NCBI GenBank assembly: GCA_963580285.1
Contig: OY757011.1
Location: 198,913,644 to 198,977,643, forward strand
Direction: 5' to 3'
Source: Lucinisca nassula
Lineage: Eukaryota; Mollusca; Bivalvia; Lucinida; Lucinidae
DNA length: 64,000 nt
Shown here: piece by piece, positions 16,461 through 64,000 of the stretch
Layout of the letters: every line of letters starts with the position of its first letter
How positions within the stretch are numbered: the first letter of the stretch is position 1
The notes under the pieces: model-generated
What the model saw: the letters and a program-made list of their open reading frames with translations, nothing else
Database searches by the model: none
What the model was told of the DNA's origin: nothing
Translations under genes and position numbers: made by a program

Positions 16461-16534
16461 ATAATATAAGAACCTAGATTGAAGGTTTGGGCCTACAGTC
16501 CCCAGTGTTTCTCACTACTGGCGTTGTTTTATTT

Positions 16535-17065
16535 TATAGACGTCATTCCGATTTAGTTTCAAAATTCAATGTTGGACTTAAATTCTGTAACAATGTCTAT
16601 CGGAACACGAATTTTATGATGACTTAGTTTATAAATTCAGAAAAATGTATAATTGCAAAGACTTCAGCACCCGATTTCGTAAAATTATTCTTCGATAAAT
16701 ATTTGGTTATACGACAGACTGCATGCATGGTAGTTTACCCAATCACGGTTGGCAACTTTGCTTCCCTCTTTAATTGCACGCGGGTTGATCAGGTCTCAGA
16801 TTCTATGAAGGCTTACTGAAAATTAGAGAGAATATGATGTTATGTAATGTTGGTTGGTGCCTGATGCTCTGTCTCTGATCGGGCATATCGGAGTCTAACT
16901 GTTGGTTTTCGTTTGCTCCAGCATTTCAGTGGTTTCTTGCTGTCGAGTCCTCACCGTTGCTTCATCTCTGTAGTTGTTTGATTTTTGTGTTCTCCGAGAT
17001 ATTGCACAGATGAGTTAGGAGGCCTTCATGCGGACTGAAAAAGTTTTGCCTAAATCGGGACGGAT
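16535..17065 (+). pseudogene. Naiad RT C-terminus and 3' UTR (5'-truncated)
   Basis: Decayed codons correspond to the C-terminal RT region read cleanly on the minus strand at 61,589-61,940: a SDLISKFNIGLK-like stretch, 'cccgatttcgtaaaattatt', 'acgacagactgcatgcatgg', 'cccaatcacggttggcaac'. The 3' UTR follows ('gttggttggtgcctgatgct'). It has frame breaks and cannot encode a protein. Confidence 0.6.
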
Positions 17066-40769: not shown

Positions 40770-42345
40770 AACAGAAGTGTAGGCAAAGATCAGGAAGCGA
40801 TACAAAAAACCCATAGCTCCCTTCAGAGACACCAAAGGGAAAGAAACACAGAAATGAAATGACTAGACCCTAATAAAAACATCAATAGCGGAAAGCCAAA
40901 CGAACAGTTACTGTCCCACAAAATGGCCAGTTGGCTTCCAAAACAAAACGATAAGCGACACACACAAAGATAGACCACAACAAGAATAAACCACGACAGA
41001 AAAACTGCCTTGGAACGATCAGTGAAACGGCTTAAATCGATTTGATGTGACCGCTATTCGTGCCCTTACTTCCGTCGCAATTGTTCAGTCCGCATATTGG
41101 CCTCCTAACTCATTTGTGCAACATCTCCGAGAATACAAAAAATCAAACAACCACAGAGATGAAACAACGGATAAGACTCGGCAGCAAGAAACCATTGAAA
41201 TGCTGGAGCAAAACAAAACCAACAGTTTGTCTTCAATGGGCCCGCCCAGAGACGGAGCACCAGGCACCAACCATCATTACATAAAATTCAATACTATTCA
41301 AATTCTCAGTAAGCCTTTACGCAGGAACCGTCATAGAATCTGAGGCCTGACCCCAAGCGTGCGATTGAAGAGGGAAGCAAAGTTGTCAACCGTGATTATG
41401 CATGCAGTCTGCCGTATAGCATTTATGTTGTATCCAATCTTTTTATATCGAAGGATGATTTATCAACATCGGGTGCTGAAGTCATTGCATGTATATTTCT
41501 TTCTAAATTTAAATACTTAGTCACAAAAAGTTCTAGGTCCGATAGACTTTGTTGAAAAAGAGATTTAAGTTCAACATTGAATTATGAAATTAAATCAGAA
41601 TGACGTCTATAAAATTTTGAAAAGGCTTTTTATATCGTTCTTCGATATAAAAAGATTGGATACAAAATGTTATACGACAGACTGCATGTATGGTAGTTAA
41701 CCCAATCACGGTTCATAACTTGGCTTCCCTCTTTAATTGCACGCCTGTGGATCAGACCTCAGATTCTATAACGGTTTTAGTGTAAAGGCTTGCTTATTTA
41801 ATGTTGGTTGGAACATGATGCTATCACTGGCTGGGCCCATTTGAGAATAACGGTTGGTTTTCTTTTACACCAGCATTTCAGTGGTTTCTTGCTGTTAAGT
41901 CCTCAGCATATTCTCATCTCTCTGGTTGTTTGATTTTAGTGTTCTCGCAGATGTTGTTACACTGGTGAGTTAGGACGCCTTCATGCGGATTGAACAAATT
42001 ATTTGTCTAAATCGCGACGGCAGTAACGACGAGGATTACGGCCGCGTAAAAGCGATTTAAGCAACCCCCACAGTTCTTTTCACTGACCATTCCTAGGCGG
42101 TTCTTTTGTCGCGGTTTATTTTTGTTATGGGTTGTCTTTGAGTGTGTGAATCGCTTATATCTTTTTGTTTGGGATAGCCAATTGGCAGTTATGTTGGAAA
42201 TTAACTGTCCATTTTGCTTCCCGCTATTGATGATTCCATTACAGTCTATTTATTTCATGTTTGTGTTTCTTTTCCTTCGGTGTCTCCGATGGGAGGTGTG
42301 GGGGTTAATTGTGTCGAATCCTGATCATTGCCTTCACTTCTAATC
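40770..42345. repeat. head-to-head pair of Naiad 3' ends
   Basis: The minus-oriented 3' UTR and C-terminal remnant (40,770-41,640) face a plus-oriented counterpart (41,640-42,345), meeting at 'cgttcttcgatataaaaag'. 'gacagactgcatg', 'cttccctctttaattgcacg' and 'cctcagattctat' recur inverted. The minus arm keeps ATGA (41,331-41,334) and AAA (41,316-41,318) of the SECIS-like fold. Confidence 0.7.
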
Positions 42346-44750: not shown

Positions 44751-46760
44751 TTGTGATTGCACGACCCGCAGAAAAAGCGACCGACTGAAGTCGGTTGATT
44801 TTCTAGAGTGCCCTAAAATCACCATGTCATTCTGTCATTCTGTCATTCTGTCAGTCTGTCTGTCCGTCCGTAACCCGTTTGTGAAAATTGGTGATAGTGA
44901 CTTAACCGCTTGGAATATTTAAACAATTTTTGGCATACTGATAGATATCAATGAGATCTAACCAATGAACTTGCGAAATATTACATTCCATTTAGTATAG
45001 CCTCGCCGAGGCGAAAAATGTGAAAATTTTCGAACTGCTTCTCCTCGGAAACCGTTGGGTCGATTGAAGTCAAATTTCATATGGAGCCTCTATGGGAAGG
45101 GGGAAGCCAAAATTTGCTCATGGGATTCAGGTCACATGACCAATATGGCCGCCAAGCCATATATGGTCTGTCTGTCTGTCCGTCCGTAACCCGTTTGTGA
45201 AAATTGGTGATAGTGACTTAACCGCTTGGAATATTTAAACAATTTTTGGCATACTGATAGATATCAATGAGATCTAACCAATGAACTTGCAAAATATTAC
45301 ATTCCATTTAGTATAGCCTCGCCGAGGCGAAAAATGTGAAAATTTTCGAACTGCTTCTCATCGGAAACCGTTGGGCCGATTAAAGTCAAATTTCATATGG
45401 AGCCTCTATGGGATGGGGGAAACCAAAATTCGCTCATGGGGTCTAGGTCACATGACCAAAATGGCCGCCAAGCCATATATGGTAAAAACCCTTCAAAAAT
45501 AGTCTTCTCCAGAACCACTGAGCAGATTTCCACGAAACTTGATAAATAGCATCTGGGACGTAGGCCCATCATAAATTGCTAAAATGGTGACCCTGGGTTG
45601 ACCTTGACCTTCTTTGTGCCTAGGTCAAACTTTGACACATATGCTTTTGTATTGGAAAAGTGAGAATGCATTTTATCCTGCAAACGATTCAGAATACAGT
45701 ACTAAAGTAATGAGATCTAACCAATGAACTTGCGAAATCTTACATTCCATTTAGTATAGCCTCGCCAAGGCGAAAAATGTGAAAATTTTCGAACTGCTTC
45801 TCCTCGGAAACCGTTGGGCCGATTGAAGTTAAATTTCATATGGAGCCTCTATGGGATGGGGGAAACCAAAATTTGCTCATGGGGTTCAGGTCACATGACC
45901 AAAATGGCCGCCAAGTAATATATGGTCCGTCTGTCTGTCCGTCCGAAACCCGTTTGTGAAAATTGGTGATAGTGACTTAACCGCTTGGAATATTTAAACA
46001 ATTTTTGGCATACTGATATATATCAATACGGCCTGCCTCAGTGGCTCAGTCGGATGCGCGTCTGACTGGTGATCAGGAGGACGCGGGTTCGACTCCCGCC
46101 GGGGTCGGCAACATTCTTTCGTGGAGATTGATCATGAAATCTTTTCTACGGTCATTCTCTCCCTTCCGCTGATTCAAGAAGGGCAGTTGTCAGTTTCTGG
46201 CGAAAGAATGTGCACTGTACTGGTTAACCGCTTACGTATAAGCCTGCCAAGGAAAGTGTTGATAGGTAAACTGACCGGCTCAAAAATGACCTAAATAGTG
46301 TTGACTGGGCCGTTAAACTCCAATACAAACAAACAAACAAACAAGATATCAATACGATCTAACCAATAAACTTGCGAAATATTACATTCCATTTTGTATA
46401 GCCTCGCCGAGGCGAAAAATGTGAAAGTTTTCGAACTGCTTCTCCTCGGAAACCGTGGGGCCGATTGAAGTCAAATTTCATATGGAGCCTCTATGGGATG
46501 GGGGAAACCAAAATTTGCTCAAGGAGTCCAGGTCACATGACCAAAATGGCCGCCAAGCCATATATGGTAAAAAACCCTTCAAAAAAGTCTTCTCCAGAAC
46601 CACTGGGCAGATTTCCACGAAACTTGATAAATAGCATCTGGGACGTAGGCCCATCATAAATTGCTAACATGGTGAACCTGGGCTCACCTTGACCTTGACC
46701 TTTAACACTCATAAAGCTAAAAGCATCCGGCGGGTCGTGCACTTCAGCTGAAGCACTGGT
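44751..46760 (+). mobile_element. second tandem-unit element, ends GCACGACCCGC
   Basis: It has the same ends and unit order as 37,521-39,176. Extra inner segments include 'cagaaccactgngcagatttcc' and 'ccttgacctt'. A tRNA-headed SINE inserted at 46,031-46,345 splits one unit, with an 11-bp duplication. Confidence 0.75.
46031..46345 (+). mobile_element. tRNA-headed SINE with 11-bp TSD
   Basis: The head has RNA polymerase III boxes (A: tggctcagtcgg; B: ggttcgactcc) in a tRNA-like ~75-nt fold. A central 'actggttaaccgctta...taagcctgccaagg' and the tail 'gttgactgggccgttaaact' with (CAAA)n follow. ATATCAATACG flanks it (46,020-46,030; 46,346-46,356). The centre and tail match the headless SINEs, so both belong to one superfamily. 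Confidence 0.9.
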
Positions 46761-49429: not shown

Positions 49430-50620
49430 AAACCAACGTCGGTGGGTCCGGTCTCAGATTCTATGACGGTTCCAGCGTAAAGGCTTACTTATTTATTTTC
49501 TATATTGGCAACGGGAAGCTTACTACTATGCTGTACGATAAACGAGATGACTTCAATTTTCCCATTGTTAACTTTCCCTTCCTGAGCAGTAATATCCCGT
49601 CTGCACCAGCCTACGGAGTATACGTTTCACAGTTAACCCGTCATGCTAGAGCCTGTTCCAAGTATCAGGACTTTATGGAACGTGGGAAGGTGCTCACAAC
49701 CAGGTTGTTATGTCAGGAGTATCAAAAATACCAAACTGGTATCAACACTAAAGAAGTTCTGTGGGAGGCATCATGATCTTGTTGATACGTACAATGTGGC
49801 CATTTCCAGAATTATTTCTGATGTGTTCGCCAATGGAAGTCCATAGGAAGACTTCCAAAATCTCGGACATATCCTTCTCGGCATTTACTCTTTTTCTTCG
49901 TTCAGGTCGATTGGCATTGTTGACGAAGCTTGCTTACTAAGTAATGCTTACTATCCTAGGACGCCTGATTACACTCTTCTGGAGTCCATGTCTGTTGATC
50001 TGAACATTAATATTTGCCATTTGACTATGGATTAATGATTTTGGATTAACGCTTTGGTACTACGACCTAAACTAATATTTAATGTTGGTTGGTACCTGAT
50101 GCTCTGTTTCTGGTTGGGCATCGGAGTCTTACTGTTGGCAGCATTTCAGTGGTTTGTTGCTGTCGAGTCCTCGCCATTGTTTCATCTTTGTGATTGTTCA
50201 ATTTTTCTGTTCTCGGAGATGTTGCACTGATGAGTTAGGAAGCCTTCATGTGGACTGAACAAACTATTTGTCTAAATCGCGACAGAATCAAGGGCAAGGA
50301 TTGCGGCCGCGTAAAATCGATTTAAGCCCCAACCCCACCCCTCTCCCCAGTGAAGTTCTTTTCACTGACCGTTCCAAGACGGTTCTTCTGTCGCGGTTAA
50401 TTTTTGTTATTGTTTGTCTTTGAGTGTGTGTGTATCGCTTATATCTTATTGCTTTGAATAACCAATTAGTCACTTTGTCGGGAAGAAGCTGTCCTTTTGG
50501 TTTTCCCGTACTGATGTTTCCATTAGGGTCTGGTTATTTGATATTTGTGTTTCTTTCTTTTGGTGTCTCCGATGGGAGATGTGGGGTAATTATATTGATT
50601 CCTGACCATTGCATTCACTT
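49430..50620 (+). repeat. Naiad 3' end with a nested retroelement fragment
   Basis: 'ctcagattctatgacggtt' (ATGA at 49,462) and 'cgtaaaggc' begin the Naiad 3' region. It is interrupted at ~49,500 and resumes at ~50,075 with 'aatgttggttggtacctgat', continuing to the 3' terminus near 50,620. The interruption holds a different RT C-terminal fragment. Confidence 0.7.
49535..49850 (+). pseudogene. RT C-terminal fragment of a second Penelope-like element
   Basis: The frame at 49,535 reads YDKRDDFNFPIVNFPFLSSN, then PAYGVYVSQLTRHARAC. The frame then shifts and continues as KKFCGRHHDLVDTYNVAISR. This is the post-catalytic C-terminal region of Penelope-like RTs, but differs from the Naiad copies here. 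It is truncated at both ends. Confidence 0.6.

Positions 50621-58987: not shown

Positions 58988-59023
<36 letters not shown>
58988..59023. repeat. (AAT)n microsatellite
   Basis: About 12 AAT units. Confidence 0.97.
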
Positions 59024-59557
59024 TTTCTTAAGATCTCGGATGGCATGTTACTTAGAAGTTGACTCATCTGGTAAAATTTCTTATTTCAAACAAATGTCCT
59101 TTCCAGGAAACTATTAATTTAAGAAGTCAATTAGGTGTCGTTTTCGGCTTAGGTGTAGGTTTCAAAGAATGCAATGTTTCTTGTTATAAAATAAATCGGA
59201 ACCTTAAGAATTGTTCTTTTATATGGGCATTTAGATACATGAAAAACATTTATCCATATAGAGAAATAAAACTGATTTTAGTTAAATGTATATTTTTTAG
59301 TCAGTGGATCATTGTCGTGACGCGATAAACTATACAATGTAGCTTATACGTTGCTTTCTGAACGAGCATTTGGTCTTTGAAAATGGTTTACAGATCCTTT
59401 GGCCAATAGATAAAGAGCGAAAACTACAGTGTTACATGTAGAGAGTCTCTTTATTACAAGAAGCATCTTTCTGTTCGTTTCATGCAGAGTCCCTGATCTT
59501 ATGCGATGCATGTCATTGTTTTTCATTCCATAATTATCCTACTCATTTTTAGAAATT
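59024..59557. other. intergenic, nothing recognised
   Basis: An 89-codon plus-strand ORF (59,059-59,328) has no family I recognise and is not claimed as a gene. Confidence 0.3.
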
Positions 59558-59826
59558 ATTACGAAAACACGCCTATTCAAATGTATTGCGAATGTTACCC
59601 TCCAAACAAATGAACATTTTAACACCAAACAATTCTGATATTTTTCATATTTATGTTCAAAGTAGAAGTTGTTGGTGGTCGTTAGAACGGCGGTTCTAAC
59701 GAGTGCTCACAATTTATGTTTTGAGCAAAAATAAGTAAAACATAATGTATACTCCTGTACACCACAGCTTTACTGTAAAATTTGGATGTTAAGGGGGGTT
59801 TAAAATATAGGCGTGTTTTCATGACG
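59558..59826. mobile_element. palindromic MITE, subfamily A (centre shortened)
   Basis: The ends are 'attacgaaaacacgcctat' and 'ataggcgtgttttcatgacg'. The centre 'cgttagaacggcggttctaacg' has lost one of the two GCCTC/GAGGC tips. Confidence 0.85.
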
Positions 59827-60124
59827 ATACAATGAAACGTCACGTCAATGGATCGAACACCTTTGAATCATAAAAGTCTACTCGAAATAAATATAGTTCA
59901 GGCCTTTACGGGTTACCTATACTGCAAGGTGAGCAAGCATAATTGGAATCTGTTCAATCTGTACCATACAAGTCCACACGATGCAGTTCTAATGGGTACA
60001 CACAACATACATTTTGAAGATAGAAATAAGAAATACGTCCTTCGATATTGTAATACTTTGGAAACAAGGACAACAATACAGAACGGAAAACTGTCGTGTG
60101 AGATCATGTTTTATTTATTCTGGG

Positions 60125-60335
60125 CCAAACTAGCTAGTTTCAGATATTTTCAAAATGATGTTAAAGGGCTCGAAAATATAACTCACGCTATGGTGAAACG
60201 CAGGGCGACTTTTTAAGGCTGCCACGCATTCTTTTACCACCAGCTGTGGTGTGATTAAATGATTTCTATTGAAAGTTAATCTTTTCGAAGCAAGGACGAC
60301 AATACAGAACGGGAAGCTGTCAAGAGCGGACATGT
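60125..60335 (-). repeat. repeat R copies, diverged
   Basis: 'ccaaactagctagtttcaga', 'ggaaacaaggacaacaatac' (60,060) and 'cgaagcaaggacgacaatac' (60,296) match repeat R in reverse. Confidence 0.45.
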
Positions 60336-60437
60336 TGTCTTTTTTCTCTGAAGTAGATTAGCTAATCTCAATAAATTTTCAATCACAGTTTTATAACTTC
60401 AGCTAAAGCAAAATCCTCAGAGACCCTAGAACGAGTT

Positions 60438-60691
60438 TATTACGAGAACACACCCGTGCGACATAATGTATTTTTTCATATCTCCAAAATATTGACTTTT
60501 CTGATGAAAATCCATGATATTTTCTCCTTTATACTAAAATATACGTTGCGGTTCTAACGAGTACCACAATACCACACTCTTTGTCTTGGAGCAAAAATGA
60601 GAAAAATAATGCATATCCCCGTAAACCCAAGTTTTCTCTATATAAAGTGGGGTTTAGGGGCGGGGGTACTCATTTCACGGACTTGTTAACA
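60438..60691. mobile_element. palindromic MITE, subfamily B (centre decayed)
   Basis: The ends are 'attacgagaacacacccgtg' and 'cacggacttgttaacatg'. The block 'ctctatataaagtggggttt' is present. Confidence 0.75.
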
Positions 60692-60826
60692 TGCTGTTGC
60701 TTCGGTTTTGGAAAACGGTGTATTAATCCTTCTACTTATAAGGATGGGCATTCAACTAACTATAATTCACTAACAGGTCTGAAGGAATTTCAATGGTTGA
60801 ACTGAATATTTTTCTTACTTTTCTTA

Positions 60827-60985
60827 GAAGCCTCCGTGGTGTAGTGGTTACGCTACTCGCCTTGTTAACCAGTGGTCGCAGGATCGATCCCGGGCTTCTC
60901 CAGACTTTCGGATGAGTCTTTAAACCGAGATGCCGTCTCCGTATGACCTCAGGTGTTGTTGGGACGTAAAACTCAAACACTCACT
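60827..60985 (+). mobile_element. tRNA-Asn-like SINE
   Basis: The head 'cctccgtggtgtagtggtta' plus 'ggtcgcaggatcgatccc' resembles tRNA-Asn with GTT at the anticodon position and recognisable A and B boxes. The body ends 'gttgggacgtaaaactcaa'. Partial repeats of 'cttacttttctt' flank it. This is a separate SINE family from the LINE-tailed one. Confidence 0.75.
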
Positions 60986-61024
60986 TAATTTTCATAAATC
61001 CTGTTTTATTCAAGAATTGCGTAA

Positions 61025-61588
61025 GAGTAGAAGTAAAACAAAGATCAGGAATTGATGCAATTAACTTACTCCACCCATAAAAGACACCAAAGGGAAAGAA
61101 ATACAAACATTAAGCGACCAGACCATAATGGAAACCTAAACAAAGGAAGGCCATACGGACAGTTACTTTCCCACAAAATGGCCATATGGCCATCCAAAAC
61201 CAAAAGACACAAGTGATACACAGTAAGTAACATACAACAACATAAATAAATCGCCACAGAAGAGCCGCCTTGGAACGGTCAGTGGAAGATTTCCACTGGG
61301 GGGCTTAAATCGATTTTACGTGGCCACAATCCTCGCCCTTACTTCCGTCGCGATTTAGACAAATAATTTGTTCAGTCCGCATGAAGGCCTCCTAACTCAT
61401 CAGTGCAACATCTCTGTGAACACAAAAATCAAAGAACCACAGAGGTGAGACAACGGTGAGGACTCGACAGCAAGAAACCACTGAAATGCTGGAGCAAAAG
61501 AAAACCAACAGTTAGACTCCGATGAGCCCGACCAGAGACAGAGCATCAGGCACCAACCGACATTATCTCTCTAATTTTCAATAAGCCT
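61025..61588 (-). other. Naiad 3' UTR (long copy)
   Basis: It lies downstream of the RT C-terminal ORF on the minus strand. It contains 'gttcacagagatgttgcact', a long stem (aaatcgcgac with its partner near 61,255) and the shared 3' terminus. Confidence 0.75.
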
Positions 61589-61606
61589 TTACGTTGGAGC
61601 CGTCAT
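61545..61606 (-). promoter_or_regulatory. candidate SECIS element overlapping the Naiad stop codon
   Basis: Reading the minus strand: ATGA (61,606-61,603), C, stem GGCTCCAAC, GT, AAA (61,590-61,588), a ~31-nt loop, stem GTTGGTGCC and TGAT (61,548-61,545). The stem pairs over nine positions with one U-U mismatch, and ATGA faces TGA to give the non-Watson-Crick G-A quartet. AUGA to AAA spacing is 12 nt, as in eukaryotic SECIS elements. The AAA overlaps the ORF's TAA stop. Copies at 41,270-41,334 and 49,462 (interrupted) keep the landmarks. Confidence 0.7.
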
Positions 61607-61940
61607 AGAATCTGAGGCCTGACCCACCGGCGTGCAATTAAAGAGGGAAGCAAAGTTGCCAACCGTGATTGGGTTAACTACCATGCATGCAGTCTGTCGT
61701 ATAATATCCATGTTGTACCCAATCTTTTTATATCGAAGAATGATTTTACGAAATTGGGTGCTGAAGTCATTGCGGTTATATATTTTTCTGAATTTATATG
61801 CTAAGTCACCATAAAATTCGGGTTCCGATAGACCTTGTTGCAGAAGAGATTTAAGTCCAATATTGAATTTTGAAATTAAATCAGAATGGCGTCTATAAAA
61901 TTTTGAAAAGGCTTTGCGTAGTTTATGGTACCGAGGTCTG
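61589..61940 (-). pseudogene. Naiad reverse transcriptase C-terminus (5'-truncated)
   Basis: The minus-strand frame reads RYHKLRKAFSKFYRRHSDLI, then SKFNIGLKSLLQQGLSEPEF, DFSTQFRKIILRYKKIGYNM and ends ASDSMTAPT-stop. It is an RT thumb/C-terminal region with no GIY-YIG domain after it, so the endonuclease of this family must be elsewhere, as at 62,014. Above ~61,940 the ORF runs into an unrelated opposite-strand piece. It is head-to-head with the plus-strand Naiad. Confidence 0.75.
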
Positions 61941-62010
61941 TTTTGGCTCCAGCAAACAATGACACTAACAACGTCGTCGTTGTTTGACGGCTTCACGCTT
62001 CTCTGTAGTT
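61941..62010 (+). repeat. plus-strand scrap of the Naiad RT region at the junction
   Basis: 'aacaacgtcgtcgttgtttg' plus 'acggcttcac' matches 63,335-63,370, including the in-frame TGA followed by CGG. It lies between the two head-to-head copies, as expected from tandem or inverted Penelope-type insertions. Confidence 0.65.
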
Positions 62011-62013
62011 AAC

Positions 62014-63018
62014 ATGTCTGATTTGACATGACAGTCTACAGATTTAATTTATCTAATTACTTGACGTGCTGCAAACTGTAATATGCAGTACGTCGGTCAA
62101 ACTAACCGCATGCTTAAAACTAGATTGAACGAGCATTATCGTAGAATGAGTAAGCCTAAGAAAACTGACACTTTCTTGTACCGTCACTTTCGACGTACAG
62201 GTCATTCTGTAAATAACATTGTTATACAACCAGTGGAAAAACTTTATTACGATGCAAATTCTACATCTAGATTCAAAATAATCAAAAGACATGAAGCTGA
62301 ACTGAAATGGATTAAATTTTTACAGACCCCTTTTCCACTGGGATTTAATGACAAAATTTATCATGAGGGTAATATTTCCAGAATGCCGGACTTTGATATT
62401 TTCTCACTCCTGGAATGTCGAAAACGTAGAACTAGATCTCACGGCACCAGGAAAAATGGTAACTTTAAACGTAAAGCACGTGCGTTTAAACGAAACAATA
62501 CTAGACTGAAGTGACTGTCAATTATATTATTAAATCATGGACGCCACTCTATGCTTTCATTTTTAAGTTCATTACCCGTTTCTGTTTCACGTCTTCTGGA
62601 CACCGAGGCGAGTAAATTCTACGATAGTTCTCATCAGTTATATGATGCGGCTCTCTTAACTAGAGGCTATACTCCGCATACTCTCCGTCCTTACATTGAT
62701 TCTGAAATTAATCATAAACGTCATTTCTTCAAAATATCCTTCATTAATAAGGGTATGGATTTTATAGATTTGCCCAGTATCTTCCGTGAGAGATCGGTGC
62801 TTTCTTCCATTCCTGCTTATTTTCAAAATACTGAAACACCTATAATTTGCTATAAATATAACAAACCTGTTAGATCTATCATTTTTAATTTCAATAAACT
62901 TGTTTCAGATCTTGATATTGATACTAATACTCCTGATTCATGTGATTGTAAAAACTCAAAGTATTGCTATCCTGCTGCTGGTCATGTAATTACTGGCAAT
63001 TTAAAAAATTATTCCTGA
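62014..63018 (+). CDS. Naiad-type Penelope-like element: GIY-YIG endonuclease and CxC linker, with UGA codons
   Basis: From ATG 62,014 the frame is open to 63,003 except for TGA at 62,029, 62,062 and 62,512. Residues ~6-100 are a GIY-YIG endonuclease (DLIYLIT, then NMQYVGQT, RLNEHYRR, a histidine pair and the RHEAELKWI glutamate). The first two TGAs fall where Penelope-like GIY-YIG domains have conserved Cys. The linker has SMLSFLSSLPVS, IDLPSIFRERSVLSSIP and the CxC motif CDC at residues 310-312. N-terminal endonuclease plus CxC defines the Naiad group. An extra A in the run at ~63,003 shifts the frame, and RT continues in the next frame. Confidence 0.8.
62029..62064 (+). other. two UGA codons at conserved-Cys positions
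   Basis: TGA at 62,029-62,031 (residue 6, SDLT-U-QST) and at 62,062-62,064 (residue 17, LIT-U-RAANC) sit at the zinc-type Cys positions of Penelope GIY-YIG domains. The rest of the surrounding frame is well preserved, which argues for selenocysteine rather than decay. Confidence 0.7.
62512..62514 (+). other. third in-frame UGA (candidate selenocysteine)
   Basis: It lies between the basic end of the endonuclease region (RNNTRLK) and LSIILLNHGRHSMLSF in the same frame, with no TAA or TAG nearby in frame. Which residue relatives carry here is not known to me. Confidence 0.5.
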
Positions 63019-64000
63019 TTCTAGGATAAGGAATATAATTTCTAAAGGACCGAAATATCGGTTTCCTTCTAAAATTGATTTCAGTAAATGTAGAGATGAA
63101 ATCGCTGCTTCCTTGAATGAATTCGGTAATCGATGGTGTAAGCGAGAGTATGTTGAGCATAAAGCCCTTAAGGACTGGAAACTTAGCATTTTAAAACTAG
63201 TGAATAAACGCATTTCTTTCTATTCTCAAAATACTAACTTATTACCTCCTAAGCCCAAGACATCTTTACGTCATCTTAAACTAGGTATTCAAGAATTTCA
63301 TAAGAAGTTTGTTTTGGCCCCTGCAGACAAGGCCGCTAACAACGTCGTCGTTGTGTGACGGCTCCACTATGTTAACACGCTTAAGCAGGAGCTTGGTGGT
63401 ACTATGGCCTATGAACTTCAGCCTTTAGCTGAAGAGAGAGCTATAGTAGATAAACATGTTTGTCTTTCAGCCACCAAGTTTGCTGTGTGTGTTAACGAAG
63501 GCCAAGACAAGCTTCCTACGCTATACTGGTTACCAAAACTTCATAAAAAACCTTACAAAGCACGGTTTATTGCAAATTCTAGCTCTTGCACTACTACTGA
63601 ACTTTCTAAATTATTAACTTCCTGTCTTACTGCTATTAAAACGCATGTAATTAAATATTGTGATAAAGTCTTTGAAAGATCAGGTTTTGTTTTGGCCCCT
63701 GCAGACAAGGCCGCTAACAACGTCGTCGTTGTGTGACGGCTCCACTATGTTAACACGCTTAAGCAGGAGCTTGGTGGTACTATGGCCTATGAACTTCAGC
63801 CTTTAGCTGAAGAGAGAGCTATAGTAGATAAACATGTTTGTCTTTCAGCCACCAAGTTTGCTGTGTGTGTTAACGAAGGCCAAGACAAGCTTCCTACGCT
63901 ATACTGGTTACCAAAACTTCATAAAAAACCTTACAAAGCACGGTTTATTGCAAATTCTAGCTCTTGCACTACTACTGAACTTTCTAAATTATTAACTTCC
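63003..64000 (+). CDS. Naiad reverse transcriptase, N-terminal part (runs off window)
   Basis: After the frame change near 63,003 the frame reads IPDSRIRNIISKGPKYRFPS, CRDEIAASLNEFGNRWCKRE, then LAPADKAANNVVVV-UGA-RLHY and LPTLYWLPKLHKKPYKARFI, ANSSSCTTTELSKLL. These are the N-terminal and fingers region of Penelope-like RTs. The catalytic palm lies beyond the window. UGA at 63,356-63,358 is followed by CGG. A 378-bp in-frame perfect duplication repeats this part from 63,689. No TAA or TAG interrupts the frame. Confidence 0.75.
63311..64000 (+). repeat. perfect 378-bp tandem duplication
   Basis: 63,311-63,622 and 63,689-64,000 are identical over the whole visible 312 bp, offset 378 bp (126 codons). 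The second copy is cut by the window end. Confidence 0.95.
63356..63358 (+). other. fourth in-frame UGA (repeated at 63,734-63,736)
   Basis: It lies in ANNVVVV-U-RLHY, where Penelope-like RTs commonly have Cys. The same TGA-CGG is present in the duplicated copy and in the separate scrap at ~61,984, so it is inherited by the family and not private to this copy. Confidence 0.65.

What the first reader, a model, noticed from the sequence alone, without database searches (positions are those of the whole stretch)
62014..63736. Penelope-like (Naiad) element whose only in-frame stops are UGA, two at conserved cysteines: a selenoprotein retroelement
Seen: from 62,014 the frame is crossed by TGA at 62,029, 62,062, 62,512 and 63,356 (repeated at 63,734) and by no TAA or TAG, apart from the frame change in an A run at ~63,003. 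Random decay should give all three stops. Two TGAs occupy Cys positions of the GIY-YIG domain and one a common Cys position in the RT. Known: N-terminal GIY-YIG plus a CxC linker defines the Naiad clade, and selenoprotein-coding Naiads have been reported in clams and spiders. Inferred: these UGAs encode selenocysteine.
Basis: partly seen in the sequence, partly recalled or inferred. Interest (0 to 1): 0.95.

Follow-up and report, generated by a model that had tools for sequence, protein, structure and literature searches.

The report
Clam jumping gene encoding selenocysteine
This is a damaged copy of an abundant retrotransposon, probably from a clam, whose enzyme is apparently made with four selenocysteines, a rare amino acid written with a stop codon; such elements had already been reported in clams, so it is a well-supported new example with a few details I did not find described.

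Summary
The window carries a truncated, lesioned copy of an N-terminal-endonuclease (Naiad-type) Penelope-like element. Three intact natural copies read here encode 1074 aa interrupted only by UGA at codons 133, 144, 294, 575. Over 20 fetched loci these sites are TGA in 18/18, 16/18, 19/20 and 21/21; the 25 other single-base stop variants are each private to one piece. Genome-wide, 18 family matches held 70 TGA, 1 TAG, 0 TAA; 37 other Naiad matches held 28, 25, 42. A diverged subfamily copy keeps three UGAs, has TGT (Cys) at 133 and shows dN/dS 0.10-0.23 in the stretches between UGAs. A SECIS overlaps the ORF end; its helix shows three compensatory double changes between subfamilies, though Rfam scores stay below the curated cut-off. 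The host, probably a bivalve, has tRNA-Sec(UCA) and SepSecS. UGA = selenocysteine is the best reading. Codon 294 is not a conserved Cys site. As I recall, selenoprotein Naiads of clams are already published, so this is a new member of a known kind; the stop codon lying inside the SECIS I did not find described. No protein evidence was available.

The parts
61999..64000 (+). 5'-truncated Naiad copy (from codon ~128 of the family ORF), continuing beyond the window
62029..62031 (+). TGA, codon 133 (conserved Cys position in front of the GIY motif)
   Evidence: TGA in 18 of 18; relatives with an endonuclease domain: Cys in 11 of 12; TGT in L037
62062..62064 (+). TGA, codon 144 (conserved Cys between the GIY and YIG motifs)
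   Evidence: TGA in 16 of 18, others CGA and AGA; Cys in 13 of 13 relatives with an endonuclease domain
62512..62514 (+). TGA, codon 294, in the variable linker between endonuclease and RT part
   Evidence: TGA in 19 of 20, other CGA; TGA in L037; no Cys in aligned relatives
62941..62949 (+). CxC motif (CDC), codons 437-439
63000..63012 (+). private lesion in an A run, changes the frame
63356..63358 (+). TGA, codon 575 (common Cys position in the RT part)
   Evidence: TGA in 21 of 21; relatives 24 Cys, 5 Trp of 29
63308..64000 (+). 378-bp exact tandem duplication (63308-63685 and from 63686 to beyond the window end); repeats TGA 575 at 63734
61589..61933 (-). C-terminal end of a second, inverted copy, ending in TAA at 61589-61591
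61537..61616 (-). SECIS of the inverted copy; contains its TAA stop codon
   Evidence: RF00031, 26.5 bits, gathering score 35, E 0.051; no other SECIS match at E up to 10 in window 1-61000

Best explanation
A high-copy, recently active Penelope-like retrotransposon of Naiad type in a probable bivalve. Its single 1074-aa protein (N-terminal GIY-YIG endonuclease, CxC motif, reverse transcriptase) is a selenoprotein with four UGA-encoded selenocysteines. A SECIS at the 3' end of the ORF, whose 5' arm encodes the last residues and whose apical A run contains the terminal UAA, recruits the host's Sec machinery so that ribosomes read UGA 133, 144, 294 and 575 as Sec. Two Sec replace endonuclease Cys (one of them a likely zinc ligand), one replaces an RT Cys, one sits in the linker. 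Shown: the sites, their conservation, selection on the readthrough frame, the SECIS sequence and its compensatory changes, tRNA-Sec and SepSecS in the host. Inferred: Sec insertion itself, zinc binding, present mobility. The window copy is itself broken.
For: TGA at the four codons in 18/18, 16/18, 19/20, 21/21. 54 of 54 scored full-length matches have exactly two TGA and no TAA/TAG in the part covered, about codons 219-1058; 15 of 18 family matches in another search have exactly four TGA and nothing else. dN/dS 0.10-0.23 in the stretches before, between and after the UGAs against a subfamily at dS 0.48. TGT at 133 in that subfamily. Cys in relatives at 133 (11 of 12), 144 (13 of 13), 575 (24 of 29). 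SECIS matches in 5 of 9 loci scanned plus the window, none elsewhere in window 1-61000; three double compensatory changes in its helix. tRNA-Sec with anticodon TCA at two loci; SepSecS exons.
Against: No protein or ribosome data. Rfam scores (25-31.5 bits) are all below the curated 35, and L015, L028 and L040 gave no SECIS match at E up to 1 although the motif is there by pattern. Folding energies are not lower than shuffles, and for the L012 variant the minimum-energy fold is not the SECIS fold. Codon 294 is not a Cys position; 5 of 29 relatives have Trp at 575. L037, the subfamily used for dN/dS, is a single broken copy with four TAA and several indels. EFsec and SBP2 not tested. Pfam gave no family for the element protein.
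Confidence: 0.92

Rival explanations
1. A dead, UGA-bearing copy was amplified in trans by other elements, so the shared UGAs are merely inherited stops.
For: Copies are young and very alike, so shared UGAs could descend from one source.
Against: dN/dS 0.135 overall between L010 and L037, which share three of the UGAs, with low values on both sides of each; shared variants are 30 synonymous, 30 nonsynonymous, 0 stops against 127, 289, 25 for private ones (p 0.005 for non/syn, 0.059 for stops); SECIS kept with compensatory changes.
Confidence: 0.02
2. The UGAs are read through by near-cognate tRNAs (Trp, Arg, Cys) rather than as selenocysteine.
For: 5 of 29 relatives have Trp at 575 and one of 12 has Trp at 133; single copies have CGA or AGA at 144 and CGA at 294.
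Against: Cys is the main residue at three sites; TGT at 133 in L037; a covarying SECIS at the ORF end; four readthroughs in a row would leave very little full-length protein (inference). The Trp relatives look like TGA-to-TGG copies favoured by ORF prediction: in the same family, clusters of 1725 and 4545 members begin two codons after the 575 site.
Confidence: 0.05
3. UGA 294 works mainly as a partial terminator that yields endonuclease alone, the other three being true Sec sites (a variant of the best explanation, not exclusive of it).
For: It lies in the linker, no aligned relative has Cys there, yet it is kept in 19 of 20 and in L037.
Against: UGA 133 and 144 lie upstream and would terminate too; relative P0004 has Asp there.
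Confidence: 0.2

Closest known systems
Selenoprotein-coding Naiads of clams and spiders (Craig et al. 2021, Mol Biol Evol 38:5005, msab225; findings recalled from memory, text not held; the reference itself seen)
   Same: N-terminal GIY-YIG, CxC linker, tandem copies, high copy number, several in-frame UGAs in a clam
   Different: Could not be compared site by site. The stop codon inside the SECIS, the non-Cys linker UGA and the Cys-type Naiad in the same genome were not found in the held literature (listings only)
Cys-type Naiads of the same genome (L043, L044)
   Same: Same protein layout, CxC motif, Cys at the places equivalent to 144 and 575 (L043) and 133, 144, 575 (L044)
   Different: No UGA at those sites; no Rfam SECIS match in L043 or L044 (L044 does not reach the 3' end)
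Fowlpox virus GPX4, a selenoprotein with its SECIS inside the ORF (PMC6769590, passages)
   Same: SECIS within or overlapping coding sequence, reported functional there
   Different: One UGA and an unrelated enzyme; here the SECIS spans the terminal stop codon of a retrotransposon ORF with four UGAs
Canonical Penelope-like elements such as PAc of Anolis (PMC11167929, passages)
   Same: GIY-YIG endonuclease and RT in one ORF, tandem copies with pseudo-LTRs
   Different: There the endonuclease is C-terminal and a hammerhead ribozyme is present; here it is N-terminal and no hammerhead matched

Membership tests
Naiad (N-terminal EN+ Penelope-like element; features recalled from memory) | GIY-YIG endonuclease N-terminal to the RT | tested here: met
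   AF2 model of L010 residues 1-300, mean pLDDT above 80 for 91-260; best PDB match I-TevI, E 3.6e-3, TM 0.81 by target length, none at E <= 0.001; RT part downstream with RYLDD at 842
Naiad (N-terminal EN+ Penelope-like element; features recalled from memory) | CxC motif between endonuclease and RT | tested here: met
   CDC at codons 437-439, aligned with CxC of relatives
Naiad (N-terminal EN+ Penelope-like element; features recalled from memory) | Tandem or inverted, truncated copies (pseudo-LTRs) | tested here: met
   Head-to-tail copies 4151 bp apart on C3; inverted 3' end beside the window copy
Naiad (N-terminal EN+ Penelope-like element; features recalled from memory) | No hammerhead ribozyme | tested here: met
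   No hammerhead among Rfam matches at the thresholds used for window 59000-64000 and 9 loci
Naiad (N-terminal EN+ Penelope-like element; features recalled from memory) | RT falls in the Naiad branch of a Penelope/telomerase RT tree | not tested
   No RT tree was made
Eukaryotic selenoprotein gene | In-frame UGA at places where homologues have Cys | tested here: met
   Met for 133, 144 and 575, not for 294
Eukaryotic selenoprotein gene | SECIS downstream in the same transcript | tested here: met
   Core AUGA / AA / UGA in place, three compensatory double changes; Rfam score below the curated cut-off and energies no lower than shuffles
Eukaryotic selenoprotein gene | Host has Sec machinery | tested here: met
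   tRNA-Sec 80 and 77.4 bits, anticodon TCA; SepSecS in 7 pieces on C1 7.323-7.346 Mb; EFsec, SBP2, PSTK not tested
Eukaryotic selenoprotein gene | Selenocysteine found in the protein | not testable with these tools
   Needs mass spectrometry or 75Se labelling

The most novel reading that the evidence does not exclude
The terminal stop codon is built into the SECIS: the UAA is part of the apical A run and the 5' arm encodes the last residues. A ribosome that finishes the ORF must unfold the SECIS and so removes the signal that the earlier UGAs need. This would make recoding self-limiting (few ribosomes per transcript) and tie transposition to selenium supply, with the non-Cys UGA 294 setting the ratio of endonuclease alone to endonuclease-RT.
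Probability: 0.2. Interest if true: 0.75.

Novelty: new member of a known kind. Interest (0 to 1): 0.5.

Why it matters
Four Sec per protein depends on repeated UGA recoding, yet this family has multiplied and kept a long ORF under selection. One genome holds both a four-Sec family and Cys-type Naiads, plus a subfamily caught with Cys at one site. That makes it possible to ask what Sec does for an endonuclease/RT and whether selenium supply limits a transposon. It also shows how ORF-based annotation cuts such elements into pieces: 22 of 126 compared database proteins begin exactly two codons after the 575 site.

Tried and rejected
Random decay of a pseudogene: rejected by copy counts and dN/dS. 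A possible second all-TGA family (L044, four TGA, 53% to P0030): looked at and rejected, its TGAs lie in a frame-shifted stretch or at non-Cys places. A loose SECIS pattern gave two strings in L043, one inside the ORF and one downstream; neither is an Rfam match and I did not assess them further. Folding energy as a SECIS test: uninformative. My first SECIS-arm script was off by one base, corrected; there 2 of 10 arm variants pair in only 2-3 of 9 positions (chance or mis-cut matches) and are not counted as SECIS. A reading of L037 lists four TAA (codons 81, 396, 720, 1033). In my notebook I wrote 14 real relatives with Cys at 144; the recount is 13. The Naiad paper is not held. Paper searches for Sec plus Penelope-like or retroelements gave listings only and nothing on this subject; one search was on processive recoding. 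Pfam on the element: no family. Host order: the COX1 tree joins the host with Laternula but warns of long branches; left open.

Full report
What is there. The frame from 62014 has TGA at 62029, 62062 and 62512 and, after a private frameshift at about 63003, at 63356; no TAA or TAG. The window copy is 5'-truncated at about 61995-61999, carries an exact 378-bp tandem duplication (63308-63685, repeated from 63686) that repeats the last TGA at 63734, and runs beyond the window. Upstream lies, inverted, the 3' end of a second copy (61589-61933, minus strand) with a SECIS hit at 61537-61616 (minus strand; RF00031, 26.5 bits, E 0.051). A scan of window 1-61000 gave no SECIS match at E up to 10.

The whole element. 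The window is part of a 2.93-Gb eukaryote assembly. The DNA search gave 2149 first-look candidates, of which 40 were scored; its long matches other than the window itself are 87-99% identical. I fetched 20 loci. Natural copies L010, L041 and L042 hold one ORF of 1074 codons from MSITNTF to SDSMTAPT-TAA, interrupted only by TGA at codons 133, 144, 294 and 575. The start lies 127 codons upstream of the ATG at 62014. Head-to-tail copies 4151 bp apart occur.

Copy counts. Over 24 aligned pieces from the 20 loci, the window copy among them (pieces under 94% identity or under about 1 kb dropped), TGA stands at 133 in 18 of 18, at 144 in 16 of 18 (others CGA, AGA), at 294 in 19 of 20 (other CGA) and at 575 in 21 of 21. 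The 25 other single-base stop variants are each private to one piece: 14 TAA, 8 TGA, 3 TAG. An earlier tally of 41 pieces, diverged ones included, gave 18/18, 16/18, 19/20 and 23/23; there two other codons had two stops each (874, TAA and TAG; 896, TAA twice; numbered from 62014). Private variants are 127 synonymous, 289 nonsynonymous and 25 stops; shared ones 30, 30 and 0 (Fisher p 0.005 for non/syn, 0.059 for stops).

Genome-wide control. With P0014 as query, 54 of 54 scored matches (102,202 first-look candidates) are near full length with exactly two TGA and no other stop in the part covered, about codons 219-1058, which spans 294 and 575; the positions were read only in L041 and L042. With P0030 as query, 18 matches of this family (38-39% identity) hold 70 TGA, 1 TAG and 0 TAA: 15 have exactly four TGA, two have three, one has four plus a TAG. 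The other 37 matches (46-61%) hold 28 TGA, 25 TAG and 42 TAA (p 2e-22; matches are related and some are pieces of one copy, so this p is not from independent events). In L043, an open copy of that other kind, Cys stands at the places of 144 and 575; in L044 at 133, 144 and 575; neither gave a SECIS match at E up to 5, though L044 does not reach the 3' end.

Selection and exchange. Copy L037 (88% identical to L010 over most of its length, 80% at the 5' end, 95% near the 3' end) has TGT at 133 and TGA at 144, 294 and 575. Against L010, dS is 0.48 and dN/dS 0.135 over 1033 codons; 0.225 before 133, 0.127 for 145-293, 0.100 for 295-574 and 0.129 for 576-1074; the ten codons 134-143 gave no value. 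So the readthrough frame was kept under selection on both sides of the UGAs. L037 itself is a broken copy with four TAA and several indels, and it is the only diverged copy measured this way.

Relatives. Of 63 proteins found with the natural copy L012 I aligned 29. The 13 with an endonuclease domain have Cys at 144 in 13 of 13, and at 133 in 11 of 12 (one Trp; one gap); stray letters from four chimeric gene models (P0003, P0015, P0019, P0021) are left out there. At 575, 24 of 29 have Cys and 5 Trp. At 294, none of the 19 with a letter has Cys; P0014 has one in the next column. The part after codon 575 found 2831 proteins, 120 listed. Of 126 proteins compared from both searches, 22 begin exactly at codon 577, two codons after the 575 site, among them clusters of 1725, 4545 and 1743 members. 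Of the 83 that reach the C-terminus, 34 end SDSMMAPT and 21 SDSMMVPT. I take this as UGA 575 and the SECIS-coding tail being widely kept; the DNA of those relatives was not seen.

SECIS. The core reads AUGACGG...GUAAAG...CCUGAUG. The TAA stop lies in the apical A run, so the SECIS overlaps the ORF end. Rfam matched 5 of 9 loci scanned (L010, L012, L018, L009, L011) at 25-31.5 bits, all below the curated 35; L015, L028 and L040 gave no match at E up to 1 although the pattern is there, and L037 ends before the site. L010 arms GGCTCCAAC/GTTGGTGCC and L040 (3' end of the L037 copy) arms GGTTCCAGT/ACTGGTACC differ by three double compensatory changes (C-G to U-A, A-U to G-C, C-G to U-A) and keep the same U-U mismatch, although the encoded residues change from MTAPT to MTVPV. 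Folding energies are no lower than shuffles in the four cases tried. A SECIS inside an ORF is reported to work in fowlpox GPX4 (PMC6769590, passages).

Host. tRNA-Sec at two loci (80 and 77.4 bits; ARAGORN anticodon TCA). The next-best match was called tRNA-Ser (L031, the only other one checked), and the same family search also rang in all 14 control genomes, over the cut-off in 5. SepSecS: seven pieces on C1 7.323-7.346 Mb, one of them with a TGA inside the match. COX1 from the mitochondrial contig has bivalves as its best named hits (65-67%), closely followed by insects and annelids, and an unnamed record at 92%; a tree joins the host to the bivalve Laternula, with a long-branch warning. A clam is probable, not proven.

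Protein. The endonuclease part folds as GIY-YIG: mean pLDDT above 80 for residues 91-260; best PDB match I-TevI, E 3.6e-3, TM 0.81 by target length. U144, C149, H185 and H191 fit the CCHH pattern that I recall for Penelope-like endonucleases; zinc binding is inferred.

Verdict. From memory, the abstract of Craig et al. 2021 already reports selenoprotein Naiads with several Sec in clams and spiders; the paper is not held and only its reference was seen. I therefore file this as a new member of a known kind. The stop codon inside the SECIS, the conserved non-Cys linker UGA and the Cys-type Naiads in the same genome are points I did not find in the held literature (listings only); the Naiad paper itself may hold them.

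Noticed in passing
window 16532-16813, 41364-41776, 49504-49734: Further diverged fragments of Naiad RT C-terminal regions elsewhere in the window (48-78% identity).
   Followed up: no
window 61933-61996: A 64-bp, 84% identical plus-strand piece of the RT region around codon 575, its TGA included, wedged between the inverted 3' end and the main copy.
   Followed up: partly
L043 (G000:C5:124072600-124076200): A Cys-type Naiad with a long stop-free frame and no Rfam SECIS match in the same genome.
   Followed up: partly
protein P0206: A close relative (76%) filed under a Candidatus Thiodiazotropha endolucinida MAG; that bacterium is, as I recall, a symbiont of lucinid clams, so this is probably host DNA in the bin.
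   Followed up: no
window 60834-60905 and 46035-46107: tRNA-like sequences: one seen by eye, perhaps the head of a SINE, one Rfam tRNA match of 42.1 bits.
   Followed up: no
window 63308-64063: The 378-bp duplication is exact over the 315 comparable bases, so it is very recent or an assembly artefact.
   Followed up: no
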